Source: an uncultured bacterium
GTDB lineage: Bacteria; UBP6; UBA1177
Reading direction: 5' to 3'
Assembly: GCA_905235605.1 (NCBI GenBank)
Contig: CAJOMF010000027.1
Span: 1-35,414 of the forward strand
DNA: 35,414 nt
Shown here piece after piece: positions 1-35,414 of this stretch. A program made the translations under genes and the position numbers. Below the pieces are notes generated by a model. It ran no database searches and was not told where the DNA came from. It saw nothing but the letters and a program-made list of their open reading frames with translations. Numbering within the stretch: position 1 is the first letter of the stretch; each line of letters begins with the position of its first letter.

Positions 1-346
1 ACTGGTTCGGATTGCACGGATCTTGCGGTTCAGTGTCAGCGTCGGTGTCAGCGTCCGTGTCAGCATCCGTGTCAGCATCAGTATCTGCGTCGGTGTCAGC
101 GTCGGTGTCAGCATCAGTATCTGCGTCGGTGTCAGCATCGGTGTCAGCATCAGTATCTGCGTCGGTGTCAGCATCGGTGTCTGCAACCGTGTCAGCTGTG
201 TCAGCCGGATCGGTTGTATCCGTGTCAACCGCCTCGGTGTCAGGGGTGTCCGTGTCTATAAGATCTCCAAGTTTAGTGTTACCGTCGCAAGCGACTGCAA
301 AGAACATTGCTGCAAGAATTGCAAAAACAGAACATACTTTTTTCAT
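1..346 (-). CDS. Lipoprotein with Asp-Ala-Asp-Thr repeats (N-terminal part, cut by window edge)
   Basis: Reads leftwards out of the window, so only the first ~115 residues are present. The N-terminus is a lipoprotein signal peptide: two Lys, a hydrophobic stretch, then a lipobox ending FAVAC with Cys20 as the predicted lipidated residue. It is followed by an acidic Asp/Thr/Pro linker and about a dozen DADT units encoded by a 12-bp DNA repeat. The last visible residues (EPQDPCNPNQ) resemble the CDPNPC start of the EGF-like module in the 852-residue lipoprotein at 31554-34112, so a Cys-rich domain probably follows. ATG at 346 was chosen over ATG at 358 because GGAG lies 8 nt upstream of it. A promoter is visible at 412-439. 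The function is unknown; a surface or periplasm-facing lipoprotein on a flexible acidic stalk is inferred. Confidence 0.8.
   Translation of the reverse strand, partial: MKKVCSVFAILAAMFFAVACDGNTKLGDLIDTDTPDTEAVDTDTTDPADTADTVADTDADTDADTDADTDADTDADTDADTDADTDADTDADTDADTDADTDADTEPQDPCNPNQ
35..186 (-). repeat. 12-bp tandem coding repeat (DADT)n
   Basis: About a dozen near-identical 12-bp units coding for Asp-Ala-Asp-Thr lie in the lipoprotein gene at the left edge. Units differ only at third positions and in alternating GAT/GAC. Because the unit is a multiple of three, copy-number slippage changes stalk length without breaking the frame. The complementary strand gives long Val-Ser open frames, which are artefacts. 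Confidence 0.85.
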
Positions 347-411
347 CTTTTTCTCCATCAAAATTCAAAATATAAACCGTTCATTTCTACCAACTTTAAA
401 AAAGCCGCGGC

Positions 412-11656: not shown

Positions 11657-14125
11657 CTAGTTGCAGGATCCGATTACAGTTTCCGGATTTTCAGCATCTA
11701 TCGGAGTCTCAACATAGTTTTTGTATGTAGCTGCATCCCAAATCGGAATAAGGACTGCATCAGCCATGTCGTAGGTGCAGACAGGATGGTTTACAGGGTC
11801 GATCTCGATGCCCTGATCTTCCATTTTTGTGTCTGTAACGATTGCGTTGCCCGGATATGAGGTGTTGCTCTCAGGAGATGCAAGAGAGTTGTCCCATTTA
11901 ACGACTGCGATCGCCTTCCACTCATTGACCTTGATTTTGAAATCTTTCGTTGTCGAAGCATAGCTGTCTTCCGGACGGTCTTTTCCGGCTTTTCTCGGAG
12001 CTTCGTCACCGTCGATAAGGATTTCGACTCTGGCATCAACTTCGTAAGCACTTTCGTCACCGGAGTAAGATGATTCACAGTGATCTGAGCCGTCGGCATA
12101 GTTGGAAGTGCAGTTTACATATCCTACAACAAGAAGATACTCATCATCAATAACCGGAACATCGGGAACACCGTCACCGTCAGCATCCGTGATCGGACCA
12201 AGACCTATTGTTTCAGGTGTTTCGTAGTTGTTACCGCCCCAGGTGTTGTCTATATCGAGGGAAGCGTGCCATGCAATCGTTCTGCCTTCGTCAGTACCTT
12301 CCAGACCCTGGTCACCGAAGGAGCAGTCATCATGACGCCAGTATTTCTCGCACTCCGGAAGTGTTACAGGACATCCAGCATCCATATCAACCGAACGCTG
12401 AGCGGTTCCAAGCAAACCTTCTGTCGGTGTAAATCCGTATTGGGGAGCTTCAAGACTGCTCTTTTTGATCATGTGAATATCGATATCGATAGCTGTTCCC
12501 TCTTTGGACTCGGATTCTGCTTTTGTCCTGAATCCCTGTTTGTAGGAAAGCTGTGCAACAACACGCGCCTGCGGGATGATTTTCGGAACGATTGTTATAT
12601 CTGCTGTGTCACTGACAAGGTCGGTCTCTTTGTCGACTGTTTCAGCCTGAATACTGACTTTGTAGTATTTCGAACGGTTCTCTTCGCAGTATTTCTGACG
12701 GCAGATGAGATAATCTGAAATCTTGAGGAAAAGGAAATCGTCAGGATTGTTTTTGTCGTATACCGGCTCGCTTCCGCATTCAGATGTACATTTGTCAGCG
12801 TTGTAAGTCGGGTTTTCTTCGCCGGGATATCTTCTCGGAGTGATCATGAGTCCGGTGAAAGTAGCTCTCTTCGGGTTGTCTCTCTTTCCGTCATCGGGAA
12901 GCCACTGACCTGCCGAGCCGCTGCTTTCAGCAAGCTGAAGTTTTGACTGGTCAAGAAGAGGAGTAGGCGACTCTTTCATTTCCCATTTGTATTTAATATA
13001 GTATCTTTCCTGCCAGTTTTCAAGGCATTTGCGCTCGCTTTCCGGAGCATCAGGATCGGAAACGCAAGTCTTAGAAAGATCCATATCGACTTTGTCGTAA
13101 ATATTTCTGTATGACATCGGCTCGGTGATAGTCGATTTGAAAGCGACATGGATTATCGGTTTAGGCGGCTTGTTGGGCTGTCTGGTAATCTGGATACGAT
13201 AGCTTGTCGAGCTTTCGCCGCAGGTGTCGGTTTTGCCTTTCGTAGGATCGTTCGTGCAGATTTCGATCGAAAATTCACCGCTGAGTTTATAGTCTGCCGG
13301 CGGATTTTTCGTCAATTCTTCCGCCGCAGCCTTGTCATAGCTGATGCGGATTTTGAATTTCGAGTTATATTTTTTCAGATCGAACCCTTTTTTGCAGGTT
13401 TTTACAGCTGAGTCGAGCTGAAGCGGGCAGAGGGAAGCGATCGCATCGTCCTTATTTTCGCCCATGTAGTCGAAAGTAAGTCCTTTTGCGTTGTAGCCTT
13501 CAGTTGCAATGCCGTTTTCCATCTTCTGAACTTCGATCTGGAAAAGTTTTTTGTATGTTGCATTATCAAGGTTTGCGATAAGCTGACCGTTCGGGTCGAT
13601 CATGTTGATCTTTCTGATCTTGAGTTCACCCGTAACACCGCGGTTGTAAATTTCAAATTCTTCGGTGATTACATCTGCAACAGCTGATTTTACGAAATAA
13701 ACCGGAGCTTCTTCTACAGCACCTTCGCCTGAATCCGTATCGGTATCCGTGTCGGTATCTGTATCAGTGTCCGTATCGGTATCCGTGTCGGTATCTGTAT
13801 CAGTGTCCGTGTCAGTATCCGTATCGGTATCGGTGTCGGTATCTGTATCCGTGTCCGTATCGGTGTCGGTATCGGTGTCGGTATCGGTATCCGTGTCCGT
13901 ATCGGTGTCGGTATCGGTGTCGGTATCGGTGTCAGCCGGTTCCGTGTCGGTATCTTCCTGGTTGCCGGTGTCGGCATCGCTTCCGTCATCCCACGGATAG
14001 TAAGCAAAGACCATTTTTGCCGGGTTCGACGCAATTTCGGGTTTTCCTTCAACATCGTAGCTGTTGCATGAAACGAAAACCGTGCATCCGAACAACAACA
14101 GCATAACTACCAGTAATCTCTTCAT
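11657..14125 (-). CDS. Large lipoprotein with a (Thr-Asp)n stalk
   Basis: An 822-residue lipoprotein with signal peptide and lipobox FVSC (Cys20). Residues ~65-135 are an almost pure Thr-Asp repeat of about 34 dipeptides encoded by a 6-bp DNA repeat. The ~690 residues after it are soluble and beta-rich in appearance, with about 18 Cys often in pairs (CTSECGSEP, CRQKYCEEN), a proline-rich PNKPPKP hinge, and an acidic DADGDGVPDVP stretch that looks like a calcium-binding (thrombospondin-3/EF-type) loop. No named domain was recognised. GGAGG lies 10 nt before the ATG; a strong promoter is upstream and an intrinsic terminator downstream, so it is transcribed alone. A surface-exposed role is inferred. 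Confidence 0.85.
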   Translation of the reverse strand: MKRLLVVMLLLFGCTVFVSCNSYDVEGKPEIASNPAKMVFAYYPWDDGSDADTGNQEDTDTEPADTDTDTDTDTDTDTDTDTDTDTDTDTDTDTDTDTDTDTDTDTDTDTDTDTDTDTDTDTDTDTDTDTDSGEGAVEEAPVYFVKSAVADVITEEFEIYNRGVTGELKIRKINMIDPNGQLIANLDNATYKKLFQIEVQKMENGIATEGYNAKGLTFDYMGENKDDAIASLCPLQLDSAVKTCKKGFDLKKYNSKFKIRISYDKAAAEELTKNPPADYKLSGEFSIEICTNDPTKGKTDTCGESSTSYRIQITRQPNKPPKPIIHVAFKSTITEPMSYRNIYDKVDMDLSKTCVSDPDAPESERKCLENWQERYYIKYKWEMKESPTPLLDQSKLQLAESSGSAGQWLPDDGKRDNPKRATFTGLMITPRRYPGEENPTYNADKCTSECGSEPVYDKNNPDDFLFLKISDYLICRQKYCEENRSKYYKVSIQAETVDKETDLVSDTADITIVPKIIPQARVVAQLSYKQGFRTKAESESKEGTAIDIDIHMIKKSSLEAPQYGFTPTEGLLGTAQRSVDMDAGCPVTLPECEKYWRHDDCSFGDQGLEGTDEGRTIAWHASLDIDNTWGGNNYETPETIGLGPITDADGDGVPDVPVIDDEYLLVVGYVNCTSNYADGSDHCESSYSGDESAYEVDARVEILIDGDEAPRKAGKDRPEDSYASTTKDFKIKVNEWKAIAVVKWDNSLASPESNTSYPGNAIVTDTKMEDQGIEIDPVNHPVCTYDMADAVLIPIWDAATYKNYVETPIDAENPETVIGSCN
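13732..13934 (-). repeat. 6-bp tandem coding repeat (Thr-Asp)n
   Basis: About 34 tandem 6-bp units coding for Asp-Thr, differing only by GAT/GAC and ACA/ACC/ACG synonymous changes. The units fall into higher-order blocks of several hexamers, a sign of expansion by unequal exchange. Length changes stay in frame. Confidence 0.9.
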
Positions 14126-17600: not shown

Positions 17601-19513
17601 TATCTGCCTCCGTTGTTTGAATTCTGCATTTTCTTCGCCTTGCGGCTCGCGCTGATTCCCATGAGGAGGACAGCCAGGATCGGACACGCCGAAGCCATGC
17701 TGAGGATGCCGAAACCTTCGACGACGCCTTCAACTCTCGCGCCGAGTCCGAGACCCATGGCAAGAACGAGCGGGACTGTGACGGGACCTGTGGTAACGCC
17801 CGCGCTGTCCCAGCCGATGTTGACGTACTGCTCATCTGACATCAGCGTAAGAATGAGCAGGATTATGTATGACGGAATGAGCATCCAGAAAATCTGAATG
17901 TTCCAGATGATCTTCACTGCGCCGAGCGCGATGCCTAAGCCTACGCCGAAAGCGACCGCATAGATCAGAGTTGTTTTCTTGAAAGTACCGACAGAAAGTT
18001 CTTCTACCTTCATGCCGAGCGCGTTGAGTGCAGGTTCGGCCAGCGTTGCTCCGAATCCCATGATGAATGCGAAGAGAATGACTATCAGGTATCCGCCGCT
18101 GCCGCCGTTTTCGCCGAAAATGGGGCCTATCTGCGGGATGTAGCGGTAGATTTTTTTCTGTTCGTCGTAGTTTTTCTCAACGAACGGGATCTGCGAATAT
18201 TTGTTGTCGTCCTCTTTTTTGAAGAAAAATTCGTTGACTTCGCCATCAGGCGTGATCGACTTCTGCACGATCGCCTTGTCGAAGTTGTGCATCGTCTCCT
18301 GGCTGTCGCTCAGTTCTATCGCGCTGAAAGATGCGGGAAGACGCGAACCGACCTGTGTTCCGATCTTGGAAAGGCCGTATTCCATGCCGATCCCGAAAAG
18401 TCCCATGCCGAGGATCGAAATGAAGATCCCGAGGAAAATTTCATCCTTTTTAGGCAGTTTTTCGCGCAGAAGAACGACGAAAACGAGAAGGATGAAGATC
18501 GTGAGCGGAAGGATCGCCTTTGCCGCTTCGAAGAACTTCGTGCTTGCGACATTGACGAGGTTTATCGCTTCTTCAACTTTTTCGCTTGCCGAGAGAGCCG
18601 CTTCGGAAAACTGCTGCTTGACAGCTTCGAATTTTTCTTCAGAGCCGACTATCTGGAGAGCTTTTTCATGGTTCGAAACACTGAAAAAATCACTCTGCGA
18701 CATCGGTTCAGGCAGACTCATGTTGAGTGCTGCGCCGAAAATATATACTGCAAGGATCGGGAACGCGCTGGCCAGAGTGACTACACCGAAGCCCATCGAA
18801 TCGCTGTCTTCGCTGCCGACCGTTCTGCAGATACCGATACCGAGTGCCAGAACGAGCGGGACCGTGACAGGACCGGTCGTAACTGCGCCGCAATCCCATG
18901 CAAGACCTGTGATATAGAGGATATTCGGATCAAAAACGCCCCAGACCGTGAAAACGAGAAGGAGCGGAATGACTGATAAAATAAAAGGTTTAAGAGAGAT
19001 CGACTTCATGAAACGGAGCATGCCGGCGATGACCGCGATGCCGACACCGATCCCGACGAATGCAACGAGATATTCCGCTTTCTGGTTGAGCATCACGAAG
19101 AGAAGAGGCGCTTCCCACGGCTTTACGAAAGAACCGTTCGCCTTGAGTATCGCGATCGAAGGTTCTGCGTAAGTCGCACCGAAACCGAGAATGAAACTGA
19201 ACGCGATTATCGTGAATAGCCCGCTTTTAAGCGGCAGTTTGACACCCAGGATCTCGCCGAGCGGCATGATGCCGAGGAAAAGACCTTCGAGGAAAAATGC
19301 CAGTCCGAGAATAACGAGACCGATACCTACTGAAATGACGCCAGCTTCATAGATCGGCATGCCGAGGATCGATGACTGGAAGAAAATGAGATAGATGACT
19401 ACCGGAAGGACTGAGACAACCTGTTCCTTGAGCTTGTCCTTGCAGAAGCCTAGCAGCATCATCATTGACTGTTTCAGCGGGATTTTGAGTTTTTCCTGTT
19501 TGTTCGAAGCCAT
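17600..19513 (-). CDS. DUF1538 integral membrane protein, two DUF1538 copies fused
   Basis: A 637-residue polytopic inner-membrane protein with roughly 12-14 helices. It holds two copies of the DUF1538 pattern: GFGATYAEPS ... AVTTGPVTVPLVLALGIG in the N-terminal half and GFGATLAEPA ... GVTTGPVTVPLVLAMGLG in the C-terminal half, with a soluble loop of about 130 residues between. From memory, DUF1538 proteins of a halophile encoded as a gene pair (UmpAB) were reported as a Na+(Li+,K+)/H+ antiporter; cation transport is therefore possible but inferred. The start at 19513 has GGAG 7 nt upstream. It shares a transcript with the P-II-like gene downstream, and a consensus promoter lies upstream. Confidence 0.85.
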   Translation of the reverse strand: MASNKQEKLKIPLKQSMMMLLGFCKDKLKEQVVSVLPVVIYLIFFQSSILGMPIYEAGVISVGIGLVILGLAFFLEGLFLGIMPLGEILGVKLPLKSGLFTIIAFSFILGFGATYAEPSIAILKANGSFVKPWEAPLLFVMLNQKAEYLVAFVGIGVGIAVIAGMLRFMKSISLKPFILSVIPLLLVFTVWGVFDPNILYITGLAWDCGAVTTGPVTVPLVLALGIGICRTVGSEDSDSMGFGVVTLASAFPILAVYIFGAALNMSLPEPMSQSDFFSVSNHEKALQIVGSEEKFEAVKQQFSEAALSASEKVEEAINLVNVASTKFFEAAKAILPLTIFILLVFVVLLREKLPKKDEIFLGIFISILGMGLFGIGMEYGLSKIGTQVGSRLPASFSAIELSDSQETMHNFDKAIVQKSITPDGEVNEFFFKKEDDNKYSQIPFVEKNYDEQKKIYRYIPQIGPIFGENGGSGGYLIVILFAFIMGFGATLAEPALNALGMKVEELSVGTFKKTTLIYAVAFGVGLGIALGAVKIIWNIQIFWMLIPSYIILLILTLMSDEQYVNIGWDSAGVTTGPVTVPLVLAMGLGLGARVEGVVEGFGILSMASACPILAVLLMGISASRKAKKMQNSNNGGR

Positions 19514-19547
19514 TTTTTTCTCCATAAAAGTTCAAAAAAAGCGGGTG

Positions 19548-19575
19548 ATTATACGCAAAACGGTTTTGAGTTCAA
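19548..19575 (-). promoter_or_regulatory. Promoter of the DUF1538/P-II-like operon
   Basis: On the minus strand TTGAAC (19570-19575), a 16-nt spacer, and a perfect TATAAT (19548-19553), 35 nt before the ATG at 19513. Confidence 0.75.
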
Positions 19576-19612
19576 AAAAAACGGATCCGGTGGCGTCACA
19601 ACCCAAAATCTT

Positions 19613-19640
19613 TTGCTATTTTTTGTATTCTGTGTAAAAT
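19613..19640 (+). promoter_or_regulatory. Promoter of the DRTGG/HATPase/HydS-like operon
   Basis: TTGCTA (19613-19618), a 16-nt spacer and TAAAAT (19635-19640), 50 nt before the first gene. It is divergent from the DUF1538 promoter. Confidence 0.55.
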
Positions 19641-19690
19641 ATTTGCCGTTTTGTTTGATTACCGTTTTTTTTATTTAAGGTGTTTGAAAC

Positions 19691-20035
19691 ATGAAAATAA
19701 GTGAAATTGTTAAACTTCTCGATGCAAAAGTCGTTTGCGGGGAAGAGTTTGCCGACCGCGAGATCGAGAGGGCTTTCGCATCTGATCTGATGAGTGACGT
19801 TCTGACTACTCCTTTTGACAACGGGATCCTGATCACGGGGCTTGCAAACCCGCAGTCGGTAAGGACTGCCGACATGATGGATGTTTCGGCGATACTTCTT
19901 GCAAGAAGGAAAAAAGCGACCGAAGAGATGATCAGTTTAGCTAAGGAAAACGATGCCGTGATAATCGAGTGTCCGCTGTCGGTTTTCCACATTTCGGGGA
20001 TACTTTACAGTCACGGATTGCAGCCTGTTTATTGA
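19691..20035 (+). CDS. DRTGG domain protein
   Basis: A 114-residue cytosolic protein matching stand-alone DRTGG domains: MKISEIVKLLDAKVVCGEE, ASDLMSDVL in place of the usual SDLLSDVM, a central GILITGLAN...DVSAILLARRK, and a PLSVFHISGILYSHGL end. Stand-alone DRTGG proteins are recurrent neighbours of hydrogenase-type Fe-S proteins and small HATPases in anaerobes, as here. Their biochemical role is unknown; ligand sensing is inferred from CBS-linked relatives. AAGGTG lies 9 nt before the ATG. It is the first gene of a three-gene operon with gaps of 17 and 11 nt. Confidence 0.75.
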   Translation: MKISEIVKLLDAKVVCGEEFADREIERAFASDLMSDVLTTPFDNGILITGLANPQSVRTADMMDVSAILLARRKKATEEMISLAKENDAVIIECPLSVFHISGILYSHGLQPVY

Positions 20036-20052
20036 TTTTTTAAAGGTGAAAC

Positions 20053-20466
20053 ATGAAGTTTGAATATCACGTGGAAGGCGGCGATTTCCTTAATGCCGGA
20101 AACGCTTCGGGTAACATCAAGAAAGTTCTCAAAAAACTGAATGTCGATACAGGGGTGCTGAAGCGCGTTGTCGTCGCACTTTATGAGGCCGAAGTCAACA
20201 TTGTCGCTCACGCTTACCGCGGAACGATCACAGCCGATATTTCACCCAAGAAAATAGAAATCGTACTTGACGACGAAGGTCCCGGCATCCCCGACATCGG
20301 TCTTGCAATGCAGCAGGGCTACTCAACGGCTTCGACAAAAGTCCGCGAGATGGGTTTCGGTGCAGGAATGGGGCTTCCGAATATCAAGGCCAATGTCGAC
20401 GACATGAAAATAGAAACAGAGGTCGGGAAAGGAACGAAATTAACTCTCTCCTTTAATCTCGGATAG
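20053..20466 (+). CDS. Anti-sigma-factor-type ATP-binding protein (HATPase_c)
   Basis: A 137-residue single GHKL ATPase domain of the RsbW/SpoIIAB type, without a dimerisation or sensor domain. Motifs: N box LYEAEVNIVAHAY, G1 box DDEGPGIPD, G2 box GFGAGMGLPNIK. Such proteins act as Ser/Thr kinases of anti-anti-sigma partners, but no such partner is encoded here. In hydrogenase gene clusters of Thermotoga and Clostridia a similar small ATPase lies beside DRTGG and HydS-like genes, so a redox-signalling role is plausible. GGTG lies 5 nt before the ATG. Confidence 0.8.
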   Translation: MKFEYHVEGGDFLNAGNASGNIKKVLKKLNVDTGVLKRVVVALYEAEVNIVAHAYRGTITADISPKKIEIVLDDEGPGIPDIGLAMQQGYSTASTKVREMGFGAGMGLPNIKANVDDMKIETEVGKGTKLTLSFNLG

Positions 20467-28378: not shown

Positions 28379-28407
28379 TTGACATATAGCTAATGGTTTG
28401 GCAGAAT
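28379..28407 (+). promoter_or_regulatory. Probable promoter of exbB-exbD-tonB
   Basis: A perfect TTGACA (28379-28384), a 17-nt spacer and CAGAAT (28402-28407), 41 nt before the exbB ATG. Confidence 0.5.
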
Positions 28408-28448
28408 CAGGCGATTTTGTTGTTTTTCTATTTTTTAAGGAGTCAAAG

Positions 28449-29051
28449 ATGGCTGAACTTATTGAAAAGGGCGGATTTATGATGTATCCGATAATCCTTT
28501 CTTCGATCATCGCGCTTGCGGTATTTATCGAAAGGATCCTCGTTTTTTCCAAAGTCAGAATGATAAGTGCCGGGAAGCTGGGTGAGATCATGGATGTGCT
28601 CAAAAACAAAGGCGCCGGTGTTGCAAAAGATCTGCTTGAATCGGAAAAGGGAGCTCTCAAAGGCTTTTTTTCGGCTGTTCTTGAAGGGGATTCGGAAGAG
28701 GCCTCCGAAAAGGCGGCAAGTGTCGCAGGAGACGACATTCTTTTCGAGCTGAACCGCAGGCTCGACTTTCTTTCGATGCTCGGAAGCGTCACGCCGCTCA
28801 TGGGGCTTCTGGGAACTGTCATCGGTATGATCAAAGTTTTTTCGCGTGTCGCTGCGGCGGGAGAAATGAGCGACATCAGCATTCTTGCAGGAGGTATCTG
28901 GGAGGCGCTTCTTACGACTGCGGCAGGGCTTGCAGTGGCCATCCCGATCCTTTTCGCCCACAACTATCTTGAAAGAAAACTCGACAAGATCTCGCACCTT
29001 ATGATGCAGAATGCCCAGAAGATGATCGCCGCTATGAATCAGGGGAAGTGA
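28449..29051 (+). CDS. exbB: ExbB/TolQ/MotA-family proton channel protein
   Basis: A 200-residue inner-membrane protein with three helices (about residues 11-33, 113-138 and 155-182) and a cytoplasmic loop between the first two. The family core is clear: LDFLSMLGSVTPLMGLLGTVIGMI and GGIWEALLTTAAGLAVAIP. With ExbD it forms the motor that uses the proton gradient to energise TonB. AAGGAG lies 7 nt before ATG 28449; an upstream in-frame start at 28398 overlaps the promoter and was rejected. It is followed one base later by exbD. Confidence 0.92.
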   Translation: MAELIEKGGFMMYPIILSSIIALAVFIERILVFSKVRMISAGKLGEIMDVLKNKGAGVAKDLLESEKGALKGFFSAVLEGDSEEASEKAASVAGDDILFELNRRLDFLSMLGSVTPLMGLLGTVIGMIKVFSRVAAAGEMSDISILAGGIWEALLTTAAGLAVAIPILFAHNYLERKLDKISHLMMQNAQKMIAAMNQGK

Positions 29052-29052
29052 G

Positions 29053-29490
29053 ATGATAAAATTCAATCATGGCTTTCAGAAAAGAGAGCGGCGCGAAGTG
29101 AACCTCACTCCGATGATCGACATAATCTTCAACCTTCTCATATTTTTCCTCATAACCGCGGTGATCTCGCAGAAAGGGCTCAACATCAAGCTGCCGAACG
29201 CCGAGACTGCCGAAAAAAGGCCGATGAAGACTCTTGAGATCACTGTAACTGCCGACAACACGATAACTTTTAACGGAAAAGTCGTGAAAAAAGATGATGT
29301 CTTTAATGAACTCAAGCGTGAAAAAGAGCTCGCAACGGCTGAAAAGCACGATGTCATAACGCTCAAAGCAGATGAATCGGCGCACTTCGGACTTTTTATT
29401 TTCGTGATGGATGCTGCGCGGAAACTCGGTTTTGAAAATCTGGCTATCGCGGCTGAGAAAAAAGCGGAGAACGAACTTGAACAACACTGA
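29053..29490 (+). CDS. exbD: ExbD/TolR-family biopolymer transport protein
   Basis: A 145-residue protein with a short cytoplasmic N-terminus (EVNLTPMIDIIFNLLIFFLI), which carries the conserved Asp in the membrane helix used for proton passage, and a periplasmic domain with the ITADNTI-type pattern (ITVTADNTITFNGKVV) and LKADESAHFG. It partners ExbB. The ATG is one base beyond the exbB stop; the 3' end overlaps tonB by 14 nt. Confidence 0.92.
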   Translation: MIKFNHGFQKRERREVNLTPMIDIIFNLLIFFLITAVISQKGLNIKLPNAETAEKRPMKTLEITVTADNTITFNGKVVKKDDVFNELKREKELATAEKHDVITLKADESAHFGLFIFVMDAARKLGFENLAIAAEKKAENELEQH

Positions 29491-30163
29491 CCGTATTTTC
29501 ACTTTTGCCGTTATATTCTCGATATTCCTACACGGTCTCTTCCTTCTTTCAAGGACAGATCTTTTTAAGGAAAGCGATGTCGTCAAAGCGACGAAACTCA
29601 TGCTGAAAATGGAGAAACCGGCTCCGCCGGAAGATCTGCCCAAGCCGAAACCGAAGCCTGAAGTTCCGAAGCCGAAAAAAATCGTGAAAAAAGATACTTT
29701 GCCCGAAAAACCGGCCGAACTGAGAGAAGAGATTAAAGAAGTTGTTTCTCCGGAAAGCGGCCTCAGAATGGCTGAAATGACCGATGCTGAAGCCGGGAGT
29801 TATGAAAAAGGGCAGGGAAGCAAAACAGGAAGCGCTGAAGCCGCTGAAACTCCGAAGACAGACACGAAAAAAATTGTTGCCGACTACAACAAAAAAGTGA
29901 ACGAAGAGATCGCGAAAAACAAAGTTTATCCTCTGCTGGCGCAGCGCCACGGCATTGAAGGAGCTGTTAAGATCTCGTTCGTCATCGATACTGACGGCTT
30001 CTTCAAAGAGATAAGGATCACAAGGTCATCGGGAGAGGAGATCCTTGACAAAGCGGCACTTGACTGTGTCGAAAAAAGCAGCGGAAAAATCAAAAAACCC
30101 GATGAAATCAAAAAGACAAAAATCAAAAGAAATATCGTGATAAGGTTCGAACTGAACAAATAG
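29477..30163 (+). CDS. tonB: TonB-family energy transducer
   Basis: A 228-residue protein with an N-terminal membrane helix (TFAVIFSIFLHGLFLL, including the His of the SxxxH motif), a Pro/Lys-rich periplasmic stretch (KPKPKPEVPKPKK), a charged linker, and a C-terminal TonB domain: YPLLAQRHGIEGAVKISFVI and ITRSSGEEILDKAALDCV. It would transmit energy from ExbBD to outer-membrane receptors; none are encoded in the window. The best start is a TTG at 29477 with GGAG 7 nt upstream, inside the end of exbD. No intrinsic terminator follows; repeat copy C begins 50 nt on. Confidence 0.9.
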   Translation: MNNTDRIFTFAVIFSIFLHGLFLLSRTDLFKESDVVKATKLMLKMEKPAPPEDLPKPKPKPEVPKPKKIVKKDTLPEKPAELREEIKEVVSPESGLRMAEMTDAEAGSYEKGQGSKTGSAEAAETPKTDTKKIVADYNKKVNEEIAKNKVYPLLAQRHGIEGAVKISFVIDTDGFFKEIRITRSSGEEILDKAALDCVEKSSGKIKKPDEIKKTKIKRNIVIRFELNK

Positions 30164-30212: not shown

Positions 30213-30294
30213 AAATCTCTTGAAAAATCAACCCCTTATTTTGTGAAACCGTGCGCTGATCAGCGTTGCAGACACAGCGGACATCATTTGTTAT
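30213..30294. repeat. Dispersed ~80-bp repeat, copy C
   Basis: Nearly colinear with copy A, with scattered G-to-A changes and two short insertions. The centre is a perfect 12-bp palindrome CGCTGATCAGCG. Its end runs into the last codons of the YhcG-like gene, so like copy A it sits at the 3' end of a minus-strand accessory gene. Confidence 0.85.
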
Positions 30295-31336
30295 GTTGCA
30301 GCCTGAAAATTTCTTTTTGTGCCTCGATTTCTGCTTTCAGTTTCTGTTCATCGGGGAGGTAAAGTTTGTATTTTGTCGCAAAAAGTTTTTCATTCCCGTG
30401 CAGAATGGAATATTTTGCAATATTTTCGTCAGTATCTGCACACAAAATAATGCCGAATGTGGGATTATCACCTTCCGTTCTTTTCAGTTCGTCATACATT
30501 CGGACATACATATCCATCTGTCCGACATCCTGATGTGTTACTTTTGATGTTTTCAGGTCAATCAGCACGAAACATTTTAGAATATAGTTATAGAAAACAA
30601 GATCTATGTAATAATCTTCTTTTTCAGTATGAATGTGCTGCTGGCGCGCCACAAAAGCATAGCCCTTGCCTAATTACATGAGGAATTTTTGAATATTTGT
30701 GATTATTGCGGCTTCAAGCTTACTTTCTGTAAAATCAGTGTTCTGCGAAAGTCCTAAAAATTCTGCCACCATCGGATTTTTTATAAATTCCAGCTTGTCC
30801 TGTAAAGGTTGCGTGATTTGATGCATTTCATCTTTTACAAGCTGTTTGTGCTGGGAAAGCAAAGTTCTCTCATAATACTGCGAAGATATGTTGCGCTGCA
30901 AAGTCCGCGTGCTCCATGTTTCTGTTATAGCTTCTTTTGAATACCAGTCTCTTGCCTGTTTATCTTCCACTTGAAGCAGAATCCTGAAATGAGACCAGGA
31001 CAAAGATTTTAGACTCACTGCGTCTAAATTTCTGAAAGCCTGATAAAATTCAATATACTTATACAGGTTGCTGGCGTCAAATCCTTTTCTGTATAAGTCG
31101 GTCAGTTCCTTTGAAAGATTTTTGATAACCGATTTTCCGTACTCAGCTCTTGCCTCACCGCCTAAATCTTCTTCGGCAATACGTCTGCCAAGAAGCCAGT
31201 TGCGTTGAGTAATCGCATAATTTATGGCTAAATATGCAAAACTTTGCGCCGATTCGATGATTATTTTTGCGTCTTCCAAAATATTGTTTGATTTCTTGTA
31301 TTCTATTCCGCCGTAAGAAATAATTGTATCATTCAT
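30284..31336 (-). pseudogene. YhcG/DUF1016-type PDDEXK nuclease, interrupted by one in-frame TAA
   Basis: The frame reads through as a 350-codon gene except for one TAA at 30674-30676. Before it lies the N-terminal DUF1016 helical domain (220 residues; NYAITQRNWLLGRRI, NLYKYIEFYQAF, LSWSHFRILL, WSTRTLQRNISSQYYERTL, VAEFLGL). After it, in the same frame, is the nuclease half (LGKGYAFVARQQH, then DYYIDLVFYN and FVLIDLKT with the catalytic Asp and DxK, then QMDMYVRMYDELKR and LHGNEKLFATKYKLYLP). Relatives read ...KFLLELGKGFAF..., so TAA replaces an expected Glu (GAA). DUF1016 proteins are often near restriction or toxin genes, but their role is unsettled. GGAG lies 6 nt before the ATG. Confidence 0.85.
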
Positions 31337-31553: not shown

Positions 31554-34112
31554 CTACCTCACACAACGGACATGCTTGCCGTTAGTCTTATTGCTGTCGT
31601 ACACGTAGCCGTAGCTGAAACCCACGCCCCATGCGTAACCTGTATTATCTGAATTAGTAGAGGAAGACCATAAAAAGTCGGTGTCTCCCAACTTGCTGTT
31701 TGTACCAGAACAACCGGAACAAGCACCATTGCTGCAATTACTGTATGAAAGGCATGAATCGGTAACACCGCAGGAGCCGCCTGTCTGAGTTGCAGAGCAA
31801 TTCTGAATAAGTGTTCTCAACTCGCTGATCGTCGGCAGATGCCAGCCGCTGAGTCCGCCCTCTGAATAGCTGCTGCAATAGTTGACTGCATTCTGCCAGG
31901 TATAGCTGGTTGTCGCCCTTGTCGACCAGGTGAGTCCGCTTGATGAATCCTTGCACGGTGTTGCACTTGTCGAGCTACATTCCGGAAGATTTTCCGGATC
32001 AACAAGGCACTTAGATTCAGATACATTCCAAGTGGAACCGGTTTTGCATCCGCATGAAAAGTCAGTTAAACTTGTTGCGCTGCACTCTCCTGTCGAATTC
32101 TGATCGCTACTGCACGACGTGCATGGGGTAACACATTTGCCAGAATCTGAATCAAAGAAATAGTTATCATCACATTCGCAGGAATATTCAGAGATATTTA
32201 TTGCTGTACATGTGCCGTGACCGCACGGATTGGAAGTGCATGGACTAACACACTTAGAATCACTCCAAAAATAATTTTCTTTGCATTTATATCTGCACTG
32301 ATTTGTGCTTGGATTTTCGTTGTAGGAACCCGTGGCTGTCGGAACCCAAGTCCCCAGGTAATCATCCCATTTTTGAATGATTTCTGAAACAGTGTTCCAT
32401 TCGGTATTTGATATTAAACCTGTGCACGCAGCAGTTTGTGTCTGAGTTGTTCCGCAGACACTACCGTCCCAATAATAACCTGAATTGCATTCGCATTTGT
32501 AAGTCGTGCCACCGAAAACAGAGCACTCTTGTGTCGAATTTGCGACACTAAGACAAGGATTGGGGTCGCATGGTGTTGTTGATGAGCCGCCGCTTGCGCA
32601 TGTCGAGCCGTTCCATGTGTAATTTGTTTCGCATTTGAACCGGCATTCGTCCTCACTTGCTTCTGTGTTGTGAACTGAGGTCGTCGAGGGCTCCCAACTT
32701 TCTCCGTTGTAGGTCTGCGTTATGCTCGAAACACTGTTCCACTGCGCGTGTTCAGGCTTGCCAAGGCAGTCCGCTGTCCTTGTCGGCGCGCTTATGCAGC
32801 TCGTTTCATCCCAGACAAAGCCTGTTTCACATTTGAATGTGCATGTTTCCGCTGTTTTGCTGTAGGTAGCTTCGTAGCCTGCCGGATACCAGCCTGAATC
32901 GGTCCAGGTCTGGGTGAACTTGCCGCTGCCGTTCCAGACTGAATTTGCAGGCTTGCCTGTGCAGTCGGCGACATTTGTTTCCGGTTCGCACTTTGAAGTT
33001 GAAGCGTTCCATTTGTAGTTTGTCTTGCAGACAAAACGGCATTCTGTGTCGCTTGCGGTTTTGTTGTAGACACCAGTCGTTGAGGGCTGCCAGTCAGAGC
33101 CGCTCCATGTCTGTTCGATGCTGTTTACTGTATTCCACTGACCGTTTGTCGGAAGATTCATGCAGGGGGAATTTTTCTTGTCAGCTGTGCATTCGGAATT
33201 TTTCCAAGTGTAATGTTCTTTGCATTTGAAGCGGCATTCTTCAGTGCTCGGATTTTCGTTGTAAACACCTGTTGTCGATTCAGGAACCCATTTTTCACCA
33301 TCCCAAGTCTGGGTTATGGTCGAAGTCGTGTTCCACTCGGCTCCGACTAACGGAAGACCGGTGCATTCAACAGTCTGAGTCGGAGCGGTTTCACACTCTG
33401 AACCGTCCCAAAGGTAACCCGTGGCGCAGACAAATCCGCATTCGACCTCGCTTTTGCTGTAAACTGCCGCGTGACTTGCAGGAGTCCAGGCAGAGCCGTT
33501 CCAAGTCTGGGCGAAGGTGCCGTTTCTGCCGCCGTCATTCCAAACTGAGTTTTCAGGTTTTGCGTCGCAGTAGGCGTTTTTCACGTCAGCCGAGCAAACT
33601 GAACCGTTCCAGCCGTAGTTCGTATCGCATTTGAACCGGCATTCGTCCTCGCTTCCTTCAAGATTAAACGATGCGACAGCTGACGGAACCCACTTTTCTC
33701 CGTTCCAGGTCTGGACTATTGCCGAAACAGTGTTCCAACTTGCGTTTTCAGGAAGCCCCGTGCAGTCTGCGACCCGCGTTTCACCGACGGTTTCACCAGT
33801 ATCGGTGACATCTGGATCAATGAAATCTTCATCGTCGCCGGAATCCGCATTGTCATCGGTAGGATCGGCATCATCCGGTGTAGTATCAGTTTCACCGTCC
33901 GAATCATCGCGGAAATCGGAAGAATCCGAAATTTCTTCATCATTTTGATTCTCTGGATCCTGAGAACTTGGAACAGAATCAGAATCGTTTGTTTCGGAAG
34001 AGGAATCGTCAGAATTTTGCTCGTTGACTATTTTTGTTGTTCCGTCGCCGCCGCATGCAGCAAATAAAAACATCACGCAGAAAAGCGCAAACACAGCACA
34101 GAATTTTTTCAT
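31554..34112 (-). CDS. Modular Cys-rich lipoprotein: seven WN..QTW modules, three EGF-like modules, DUF1566 end
   Basis: An 852-residue lipoprotein, lipobox FAAC (Cys20), followed by ~90 residues of acidic Asp/Glu/Ser/Thr linker. From about residue 114 to 575 come modules of ~63 residues with the pattern C-x-G-x-P-x(3)-x-WN(T)-S-I-x-QTW(N/D/S)G-x-W-x-P ... E-CRFKC-x-N-Y-x-W-N-x-S-x-C, four Cys each; seven copies are visible. EGF-like modules (CDPNPC..., CTSNPCGHGTC..., CTSCSSDQ...) separate or follow the last copies. The C-terminus from about 715 is a DUF1566/Lcl domain (GLTWS...WQNAVNYCSSY...LSGWHLPTISELRTLI ... GKHVRCVR). The likely role is adhesion or binding at the cell surface. GGAG lies 7 nt before the ATG, only 16 nt after the KwaA-like gene. 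Confidence 0.87.
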   Translation of the reverse strand: MKKFCAVFALFCVMFLFAACGGDGTTKIVNEQNSDDSSSETNDSDSVPSSQDPENQNDEEISDSSDFRDDSDGETDTTPDDADPTDDNADSGDDEDFIDPDVTDTGETVGETRVADCTGLPENASWNTVSAIVQTWNGEKWVPSAVASFNLEGSEDECRFKCDTNYGWNGSVCSADVKNAYCDAKPENSVWNDGGRNGTFAQTWNGSAWTPASHAAVYSKSEVECGFVCATGYLWDGSECETAPTQTVECTGLPLVGAEWNTTSTITQTWDGEKWVPESTTGVYNENPSTEECRFKCKEHYTWKNSECTADKKNSPCMNLPTNGQWNTVNSIEQTWSGSDWQPSTTGVYNKTASDTECRFVCKTNYKWNASTSKCEPETNVADCTGKPANSVWNGSGKFTQTWTDSGWYPAGYEATYSKTAETCTFKCETGFVWDETSCISAPTRTADCLGKPEHAQWNSVSSITQTYNGESWEPSTTSVHNTEASEDECRFKCETNYTWNGSTCASGGSSTTPCDPNPCLSVANSTQECSVFGGTTYKCECNSGYYWDGSVCGTTQTQTAACTGLISNTEWNTVSEIIQKWDDYLGTWVPTATGSYNENPSTNQCRYKCKENYFWSDSKCVSPCTSNPCGHGTCTAINISEYSCECDDNYFFDSDSGKCVTPCTSCSSDQNSTGECSATSLTDFSCGCKTGSTWNVSESKCLVDPENLPECSSTSATPCKDSSSGLTWSTRATTSYTWQNAVNYCSSYSEGGLSGWHLPTISELRTLIQNCSATQTGGSCGVTDSCLSYSNCSNGACSGCSGTNSKLGDTDFLWSSSTNSDNTGYAWGVGFSYGYVYDSNKTNGKHVRCVR

Positions 34113-34128: not shown

Positions 34129-34689
34129 TTAATAATTTTTATCATCATGAAAAAGACAGTCATTGTTGATAATTTTCGTATTTATCTCTGTATCTACTAA
34201 AGTTTTTAAATCATCTTTGCTTATTATGGTTCTTTCAATGGTAACTCTTGTTTGTGTATTTTCGATTTTACACAGAAAGGCTTTGTAACCGCAGAGTTCC
34301 AAAAATATATTTGCTGGAAAATAATTGTGACGACTATAGAGAAAGAATAGTGTGAAAAAGAAAATCAAAAAAAGTAGAGTGTCAAGCCAAAGGGTAAAAT
34401 TAAAAGCTAATATTGGAAGAATATATGCCGAAATGTATTCTGCAGTATTCATTTTTAATTCCGAAACGCTTAAGATTTTGTATTTTATAGCTGTTTGTTT
34501 TTTACTTCGATTAAATACAAAAACTCCAATTGAAATTATAAAACAAAGCAAGATAGAGAAAAAACTTGTAATTTCAGTGTATATATTCGGAGAGAGCCTG
34601 TATATTTTGACAATATCAATTATCAAAATTGAAATCCATAAAGGGAGTAAGGATAAAAATAGCATGCTGAAAGATAAAAGTGTAGACAT
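34129..34689 (-). CDS. kwaA: KwaA-like four-helix membrane protein (Kiwa anti-phage system)
   Basis: A 186-residue protein with about four membrane helices in the first ~130 residues (LLSFSMLFLSLLPLWISILII; FFSILLCFIISIGVFVF; YISAYILPILAFNFTLW; LLFLIFFFTLFFLY). A small cytosolic tail follows, containing CGYKAFLCKIEN and then a Thr/Ile-rich strand and acidic helix. Size, topology, the G-Y-K tail motif and position next to a DUF4868 gene fit KwaA, which senses phage attachment at the membrane in Kiwa. The sequence alone is too divergent to be sure. GAGGT lies 7 nt before the ATG, 12 nt after the KwaB-like stop. The gene is noticeably more AT-rich than the housekeeping genes, in keeping with transfer. 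Confidence 0.55.
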   Translation of the reverse strand: MSTLLSFSMLFLSLLPLWISILIIDIVKIYRLSPNIYTEITSFFSILLCFIISIGVFVFNRSKKQTAIKYKILSVSELKMNTAEYISAYILPILAFNFTLWLDTLLFLIFFFTLFFLYSRHNYFPANIFLELCGYKAFLCKIENTQTRVTIERTIISKDDLKTLVDTEINTKIINNDCLFHDDKNY

Positions 34690-34701
34690 GGATTTAACCT
34701 C

Positions 34702-35361
34702 TTATTTCCATTTTGTTGTTCCTTCCACTTCAATAGGAGTTTGGTTAAAAGGTTCAAGAGCAGCTTTATCACAAAGGAGTTTGATGACTTTTTCAGCATC
34801 GTCTTTGTTCGCGATATTGAATTTATTTAATGAATTTAATGCTATAGAAAATTGCTTGGCAAGTTGTTTACGTCTTTCCGTATTTTTTATGGACTCTAAA
34901 TTATCTTTATTGTATGCCATAAAACGTCTGGGGTTAAAGCCGCTTTCTGCAACTTTTTTAAATAAATCAAAATCGTCGATAATATCGGCATCTTGAATTT
35001 CTTGAATTTTTACTTGAGCATTGTTTTTATAAGCTCGTTCCAAGTTGAATAGTTTTTCTCCATCCAGATTCAGAAAATATACAGTGTCGTTAATAATCAC
35101 GACATCAATCATCGTCCGCAAATTCAAGACTTTGTCTGTTATTTTGCTGAAAGTATTGCTTGAATATAAAAATTTGTGTTTTAATCTAGTTGTCGGATTT
35201 TGCATGGAAACAAGAATAACAGTTTTTTTCCCGTCTTTAAAATCAATAGAGCATTGCAGAATGTAGGCATTTTCATATGTTAAAGGATTGCTTTCCACAT
35301 TCTGTTCAGACAATTTTTTGGGTTCAGTCACATTTTGTGTGGGATAAAAGATTTTGTTCAT
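34702..35361 (-). CDS. kwaB: KwaB-like DUF4868 protein (Kiwa anti-phage system), probably N-terminally incomplete
   Basis: The open frame gives 219 residues that look like the middle and C-terminal parts of DUF4868/KwaB: YILQCSIDFKDGKKTVILVSM, a hydrophobic IDVVIINDTVYFLN strand pair, FNLERAYKN, DDFDLFKKVAESGFNPRR, a Lys-rich helix and AEKVIKLLCDKAALEPFNQT near the end. KwaB binds DNA and acts with KwaA to halt phage. KwaB of E. coli is, from memory, a little over 300 residues, so ~95 are missing. ATG 35361 has no ribosome binding site, unlike nearly every other gene here, and the frame just upstream is closed by TGA. The missing part may lie in the other frame at 35324-35413. Confidence 0.6.
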   Translation of the reverse strand: MNKIFYPTQNVTEPKKLSEQNVESNPLTYENAYILQCSIDFKDGKKTVILVSMQNPTTRLKHKFLYSSNTFSKITDKVLNLRTMIDVVIINDTVYFLNLDGEKLFNLERAYKNNAQVKIQEIQDADIIDDFDLFKKVAESGFNPRRFMAYNKDNLESIKNTERRKQLAKQFSIALNSLNKFNIANKDDAEKVIKLLCDKAALEPFNQTPIEVEGTTKWK

Positions 35362-35413
35362 GTCCGTGTCTGCTCATATCAATAAGTTTTAAGAAAAAGT
35401 ATTCGTCGTCATT
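35324..35413 (-). CDS. C-terminal fragment of an upstream frame, possibly the KwaB N-terminal region
   Basis: Entering from the right edge, one minus-strand frame is open and reads NDDEYFFLKLIDMSRHGHEQ and then nine more codons to a TGA at 35324-35326, overlapping the KwaB-like start by 38 nt. The EYFFLKLID stretch resembles a beta strand of the kind seen early in DUF4868 proteins. Removing one A from the CAAAAT run near 35353 would join it to the KwaB-like frame (HEQ-IFYPTQ). It could equally be the end of an unrelated gene that overlaps kwaB. Confidence 0.4.
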   Translation of the reverse strand, partial: NDDEYFFLKLIDMSRHGHEQNLLSHTKCD

Positions 35414-35414
35414 A

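What the first reader, a model, noticed from the sequence alone, without database searches (positions are those of the whole stretch)
34129..35413. Kiwa-like anti-phage locus with a B-before-A order and a possibly frameshifted KwaB
Seen: a four-helix small membrane protein lies 12 nt after a DUF4868-like protein, in AT-rich DNA. As I recall, described Kiwa loci place kwaA first; here the KwaB-like gene is first. The KwaB-like frame is short by about 95 residues, its ATG lacks a ribosome binding site, and a coding-looking frame overlaps it upstream. A one-base change in the CAAAAT run would fuse the two frames.
Basis: partly seen in the sequence, partly recalled or inferred. Interest (0 to 1): 0.65.

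Follow-up and report, generated by a model that had tools for sequence, protein, structure and literature searches.

The report
Phage-defence gene cut by jumping element
The end of this contig carries a real but ordinary Kiwa anti-phage gene pair whose first gene (kwaB) has lost its beginning to an inserted jumping element, so the suspected frameshift is really the element's edge, and the gene order is one already seen in a working system.

Summary
Both genes are Kiwa genes. 34129-34689(-) is KwaA and 34702-35320(-) is the C-terminal two thirds of KwaB (PADLOC, Pfam, NCBIfam, PDB sequence and fold searches). The frameshift idea is wrong. Bases 35321-35414 are the right end of a multicopy ISL3-family insertion sequence: the same end lies at ten other contig ends of this genome, and a diverged full copy with inverted ends lies on contig C16. 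The 'coding-looking upstream frame' is the transposase C-terminus, and the RBS-less ATG at 35361 lies inside the element. The missing KwaB N-terminus (101 codons, good RBS) was found on contig C33, running into the left end of the same kind of element. A KwaB N-terminal profile scores it above all 308 non-KwaB decoys. The 8-bp target duplication agrees at only 7 of 8 bases and the frames do not join cleanly, so this pairing is likely but not proven. B-before-A order is ordinary: it occurs in a sister species, Paenibacillus, Lacticaseibacillus, several IMG/VR contigs and the experimentally active Kiwa of Streptococcus thermophilus 90730; A-before-B occurs in another sister species. Most likely this is a Kiwa system inactivated by an IS insertion.

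The parts
34129..34689 (-). kwaA: 186-aa membrane protein, intact, with an AGAGG ribosome-binding site
   Evidence: PADLOC KwaA 1.8e-10 and NCBIfam KwaA 1.7e-13; phmmer to PDB KwaA 0.013, profile 1e-16; Foldseek to KwaA cryo-EM entries, probability 1.00 (model pLDDT 60)
34702..35320 (-). 3' part of kwaB (205 codons plus stop); the 5' part is missing
   Evidence: Pfam KwaB PF16162 2.9e-14, PADLOC KwaB 7e-13; PDB KwaB by profile 5.6e-8; Foldseek to KwaB, probability 1.00 (model pLDDT 68)
35321..35414 (-). right end of an ISL3-family insertion sequence, cut by the contig end
   Evidence: same sequence at ten other contig ends and, 83% identical, at one end of a 1533-bp unit on C16 that encodes a PF01610 transposase
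35321..35347 (+). terminal inverted repeat GGTTCAGTCACATTTTGTGTGGGATAA
   Evidence: twelve exact places in the genome, eleven of them contig ends
35324..35413 (-). C-terminus of the transposase (the 'coding-looking' upstream frame)
   Evidence: NDDEYFFLKLIDMSRHGHEQNLLSHTKCD* against NDDDYFFLKLIDMSRL* of the C16 copy
35359..35361 (-). ATG taken as the KwaB start; it lies inside the element and is probably not a native start
   Evidence: position relative to the element edge; no ribosome-binding site
35313..35320 (-). CAAAAAAT, expected 8-bp target duplication; C33 has AAAAAAAT at its element edge
   Evidence: 7 of 8 bases agree; another copy (C97/C5) has an exact 8-bp duplication

Best explanation
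A two-gene Kiwa anti-phage locus (kwaB then kwaA) that was inactivated when an ISL3-family insertion sequence landed about 100 codons into kwaB. Shown: identity of both genes, the element edge at 35321, its multicopy nature, and that the overlapping frame is transposase. Strongly suggested: the lost 5' part of kwaB is the 101-codon ORF at the end of contig C33, beside the left end of the same kind of element. Inferred from published work: an intact pair makes membrane KwaA tetramers carrying KwaB dimers that gather at phage entry sites and bind the injected DNA; without its N-terminal domain, predicted to form the dimer, KwaB should not assemble, so the locus is probably dead in the cells that gave this assembly.
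For: Gene identity. Element: the last 94 bp recur at ten other contig ends, with identical end sequence and different outside DNA; C16 has the unit with inverted ends and a PF01610 transposase; exact 8-bp duplication GTGAAAAA at the C97/C5 copy. Upstream frame is transposase. Missing half: C33 ORF with GGAGG 6 nt before its ATG runs into the element's left end; PDLC00231 rises from 26.7 to 33.2 bits and starts at residue 1 when the halves are joined; N-terminal KwaB profile gives 12.2 bits against 4.6 for the best of 308 non-KwaB decoys and 2 of 4982 shuffles as high. Mechanism from PMC12904381 and PMC11514479.
Against: PDLC00223 falls from 46.6 to 41.9 bits when the halves are joined, and the C33 piece alone matches no PADLOC model. 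The duplication agrees at 7 of 8 bases and the two pieces are one base out of frame across an A run; C116 also agrees with C33 at 7 of 8, though its edge is non-coding. The element interior is not assembled. Loss of activity is inferred, and an unbroken allele could exist in the population.
Confidence: 0.93

Rival explanations
1. kwaB is frameshifted (really or by sequencing error) and the overlapping upstream frame is its own N-terminal part.
For: The upstream frame is open and overlaps the KwaB frame; a one-base change would fuse the two.
Against: The upstream frame is the C-terminus of an ISL3 transposase, repeated at ten other contig ends beside unrelated DNA.
Confidence: 0.01
2. The element did cut kwaB, but the C33 ORF is not its other half: the lost 5' part lies on an unassembled or unbinned contig, or was rearranged or deleted by recombination between element copies.
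For: Duplication inexact and frames out of step; eleven right ends but only six left ends recovered; sister-species synteny shows rearranged joints at element copies.
Against: The C33 ORF has the expected length, a native-looking start, and the profile match described.
Confidence: 0.18
3. The truncated KwaB, started from the ATG inside the element or from an internal start and transcribed from the element, still works with KwaA as a shortened Kiwa.
For: The transposase and kwaB read in the same direction; kwaA is intact with a good ribosome-binding site; the remaining KwaB frame has no further break.
Against: The N-terminal domain is predicted to form the KwaB dimer (PMC11514479), which the KwaA-KwaB complex uses (PMC12904381); the start lacks a ribosome-binding site. 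All full relatives keep the N-terminal part.
Confidence: 0.04

Closest known systems
Kiwa of Streptococcus thermophilus 90730 (kwaB 0688, kwaA 0689; PMC11514479)
   Same: two genes, kwaB before kwaA, KwaB with DUF4868 domain and small membrane KwaA; that pair is active against phages sk1 and c2
   Different: kwaB is complete there; here its first third is cut off by an insertion sequence, and the proteins are divergent
Kiwa of solved structures (PDB 9mrg, 9mrr, 9mrx, 9mtn, 9nyu, 9o0i)
   Same: sequence profiles and predicted folds of both window proteins match KwaA and KwaB
   Different: about 12-19% identity in the structural alignments; window KwaB lacks the N-terminal domain
B-before-A Kiwa of sister species G006 (RGIG7134, water-buffalo abomasum; L046/L059)
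   Same: same genus, same gene order, adjacent genes
   Different: complete kwaB; only about 20% identical, so an independent acquisition rather than an orthologue
ISL3-family insertion sequences
   Same: PF01610 transposase with ISL3 zinc ribbon, GG-starting imperfect inverted ends, 8-bp AT-rich target duplication
   Different: the window copy is known only from its ends and from a diverged copy on C16

Membership tests
Kiwa anti-phage system | KwaB with DUF4868/KwaB domain | tested here: met
   Pfam PF16162 53.9 bits, cut-off 26.3; PADLOC KwaB 7e-13; below the NCBIfam equivalog cut-off, 33.9 of 200 bits
Kiwa anti-phage system | small four-helix membrane protein KwaA | tested here: met
   PADLOC 1.8e-10, NCBIfam 1.7e-13 though below its cut-off (50.8 of 100 bits); fold match to KwaA
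Kiwa anti-phage system | the two genes adjacent on one strand | tested here: met
   12-nt gap; either order occurs in the family
Kiwa anti-phage system | both genes intact | tested here: not met
   kwaB cut at 35321 by an ISL3 end; this is a broken locus of the family, not a working system as assembled
Kiwa anti-phage system | protection against phage | not testable with these tools
   needs a plating assay
ISL3-family insertion sequence | DDE transposase of the ISL3 type | tested here: met
   PF01610 8.7e-40 on the C16 copy; window frame matches its C-terminus
ISL3-family insertion sequence | terminal inverted repeats | tested here: met
   C16 unit 18648-20180 and left/right contig ends
ISL3-family insertion sequence | 8-bp target duplication | tested here: inconclusive
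   exact at the C97/C5 copy, 7 of 8 for the window/C33 pair

The most novel reading that the evidence does not exclude
The insertion is reversible or present in only part of the population, so that movement of the ISL3 element into and out of kwaB switches a costly Kiwa system off and on.
Probability: 0.04. Interest if true: 0.4.

Novelty: new member of a known kind. Interest (0 to 1): 0.14.

Why it matters
It corrects two tempting claims: B-before-A Kiwa is a common arrangement with an experimentally active example, not a new variant, and an apparent frameshift at a contig end can be the edge of a multicopy insertion sequence. It also adds a divergent, broken Kiwa to a gut lineage in which two sister species carry unrelated Kiwa loci in opposite gene orders, which fits repeated gain and loss.

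Tried and rejected
Frameshift fusion of the two frames: rejected, the upstream frame is transposase. Close relatives of the window KwaB in plasmids, phages, IMG/VR, 84,980 species genomes and 290 relatives: none, so no close full-length homologue could join the halves. Trees of KwaA and KwaB to place the window: very long branch, no supported place. Pattern search for the expected duplication beside the right-end sequence: none, because the element's left end has a different sequence. C116 as partner of C33: rejected because its edge is non-coding DNA behind a korC-like gene. Sister-species synteny as proof that C33 and C27 are adjacent: inconclusive. No Rfam family or tRNA in the window.

Full report
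Observation. The window is contig C27 of a 136-contig genome and its last base is the contig end. The membrane protein matches KwaA models of PADLOC (1.8e-10) and NCBIfam (1.7e-13); the other matches KwaB of Pfam (2.9e-14, over the curated cut-off) and PADLOC (7e-13). Profiles made from the window proteins and their relatives find the solved Kiwa proteins (KwaA 1e-16, KwaB 5.6e-8). The predicted folds are of low confidence (mean pLDDT 60 and 68), yet their only convincing PDB matches are KwaA and KwaB, probability 1.00. The identity is therefore settled, although neither protein reaches the NCBIfam equivalog cut-off.

The 'frameshift'. A search of the genome with this region returned ten other places that match only its last 94-109 bases, all at the very ends of contigs, plus an 83% match inside contig C16. 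On C16 the matches lie at both ends of a 1533-bp unit in inverted orientation, enclosing a transposase of the ISL3 family (PF01610, 8.7e-40). All eleven contig ends share GGTTCAGTCACATTTTGTGTGGGATAA with different DNA outside it. The element edge is at 35321. The overlapping frame NDDEYFFLKLIDMSRHGHEQNLLSHTKCD* is the transposase C-terminus, as in the C16 copy (NDDDYFFLKLIDMSRL*). The ATG at 35361 lies inside the element in another frame. So kwaB is cut 205 codons before its stop, and the contig ends where the assembler met a repeat.

The missing part. The element's left end is found on six other contigs. One pair, C97 and C5, shows an exact 8-bp duplication GTGAAAAA, the length usual for ISL3 elements (general knowledge). 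On C33 an ORF with a strong ribosome-binding site (GGAGG, 6 nt before the ATG) runs for 101 codons straight into the element. Alone it matches no PADLOC model. Joined to the window part it raises the PDLC00231 score from 26.7 to 33.2 bits and makes the match start at residue 1 of both, while PDLC00223 falls from 46.6 to 41.9. With a profile of the N-terminal parts of 14 KwaB proteins it scores 12.2 bits. Of 311 decoy N-termini from the fetched loci only three score higher, and these three are KwaB proteins themselves; the next decoy has 4.6 bits, and 2 of 4982 shuffles reach 12.2. The duplication agrees at 7 of 8 bases, and the two pieces are not in one frame across a run of A. C116 also agrees at 7 of 8, but its edge is non-coding DNA behind a korC-like gene. 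I take C33 as the other half with probability about 0.8.

Gene order. Among complete loci found here, kwaB precedes kwaA in sister species G006, Paenibacillus crassostreae plasmid pPC03, two Lacticaseibacillus species and several distinct IMG/VR contigs. kwaA precedes kwaB in sister species G001 and in plasmids of Vibrio europaeus, Hymenobacter and Microvirga. The A-B loci form one group in the KwaA and KwaB trees, while the window sits on a very long branch without a supported place. This sample was gathered mainly with B-A queries, so the ratio is not a census. Streptococcus thermophilus 90730 has kwaB then kwaA, and that pair reduced plating of phages sk1 and c2 by 5 and 4 logs (PMC11514479). 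B-before-A is thus known and functional.

Mechanism. According to PMC12904381, which summarises the structural work, KwaA tetramers in the inner membrane carry KwaB dimers, the complex gathers at phage injection sites, and KwaB binds the entering DNA without cutting it. PMC11514479 predicts that KwaB dimerises mainly through its N-terminal domain. That domain is what the element removes here, so loss of function is the natural inference; it has not been tested. The transposase reads in the same direction as kwaB, so transcription into kwaB-kwaA is possible, but no native KwaB start remains.

Surroundings. In sister species G003 the korABC genes (C116 here), the exbB-exbD-tonB-like genes (window 28398-30163) and the gene at the C79 end are neighbours. 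In this genome the DUF1016, lipoprotein, kwaA and kwaB genes and element copies lie between them, which marks an insertion-prone spot. The neighbouring DUF1016/YhcG-type nuclease gene is itself broken by one in-frame stop.

Verdict. Interest is low.

Noticed in passing
window 30284-31336, minus strand: A DUF1016/YhcG-type PDDEXK nuclease gene (PF17761 1e-38; PADLOC PDC-S02 4e-68) is split by one in-frame TGA between FLM and LGKGYAFVARQ, a second broken defence-like gene 3 kb from kwaA.
   Followed up: partly
L038:5215-5345 (contig C33) and 14 other places in the genome: A dispersed AT-rich repeat of about 70-100 bp lies just upstream of the kwaB 5' fragment, often followed by GGAATCA-type short repeats; two copies abut ISL3 ends (C79, C97).
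   Followed up: partly
G001 (L047) and G006 (L046): Two sister species of the same genus carry unrelated Kiwa loci in opposite gene orders (A-B and B-A).
   Followed up: partly
L065/L084 (IMG/VR 2512047057_000011): A kwaB nearly identical to L061 has a broken reading frame beside an intact kwaA, so broken kwaB genes recur.
   Followed up: no
G000 C27 30163 / C79 9677-9803 against L078 (G003 C19): korABC, exbB-exbD-tonB-like genes and the C79 gene are contiguous in sister species G003 but separated in this genome by the DUF1016-lipoprotein-kwaA-kwaB block and ISL3 copies.
   Followed up: partly
window 2-361, 11657-14125, 31554-34112: Large lipoprotein genes, two with long Asp-Thr runs (DTDTDTD) and one with Cys-rich repeats and an Lcl C-terminal domain.
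   Followed up: no
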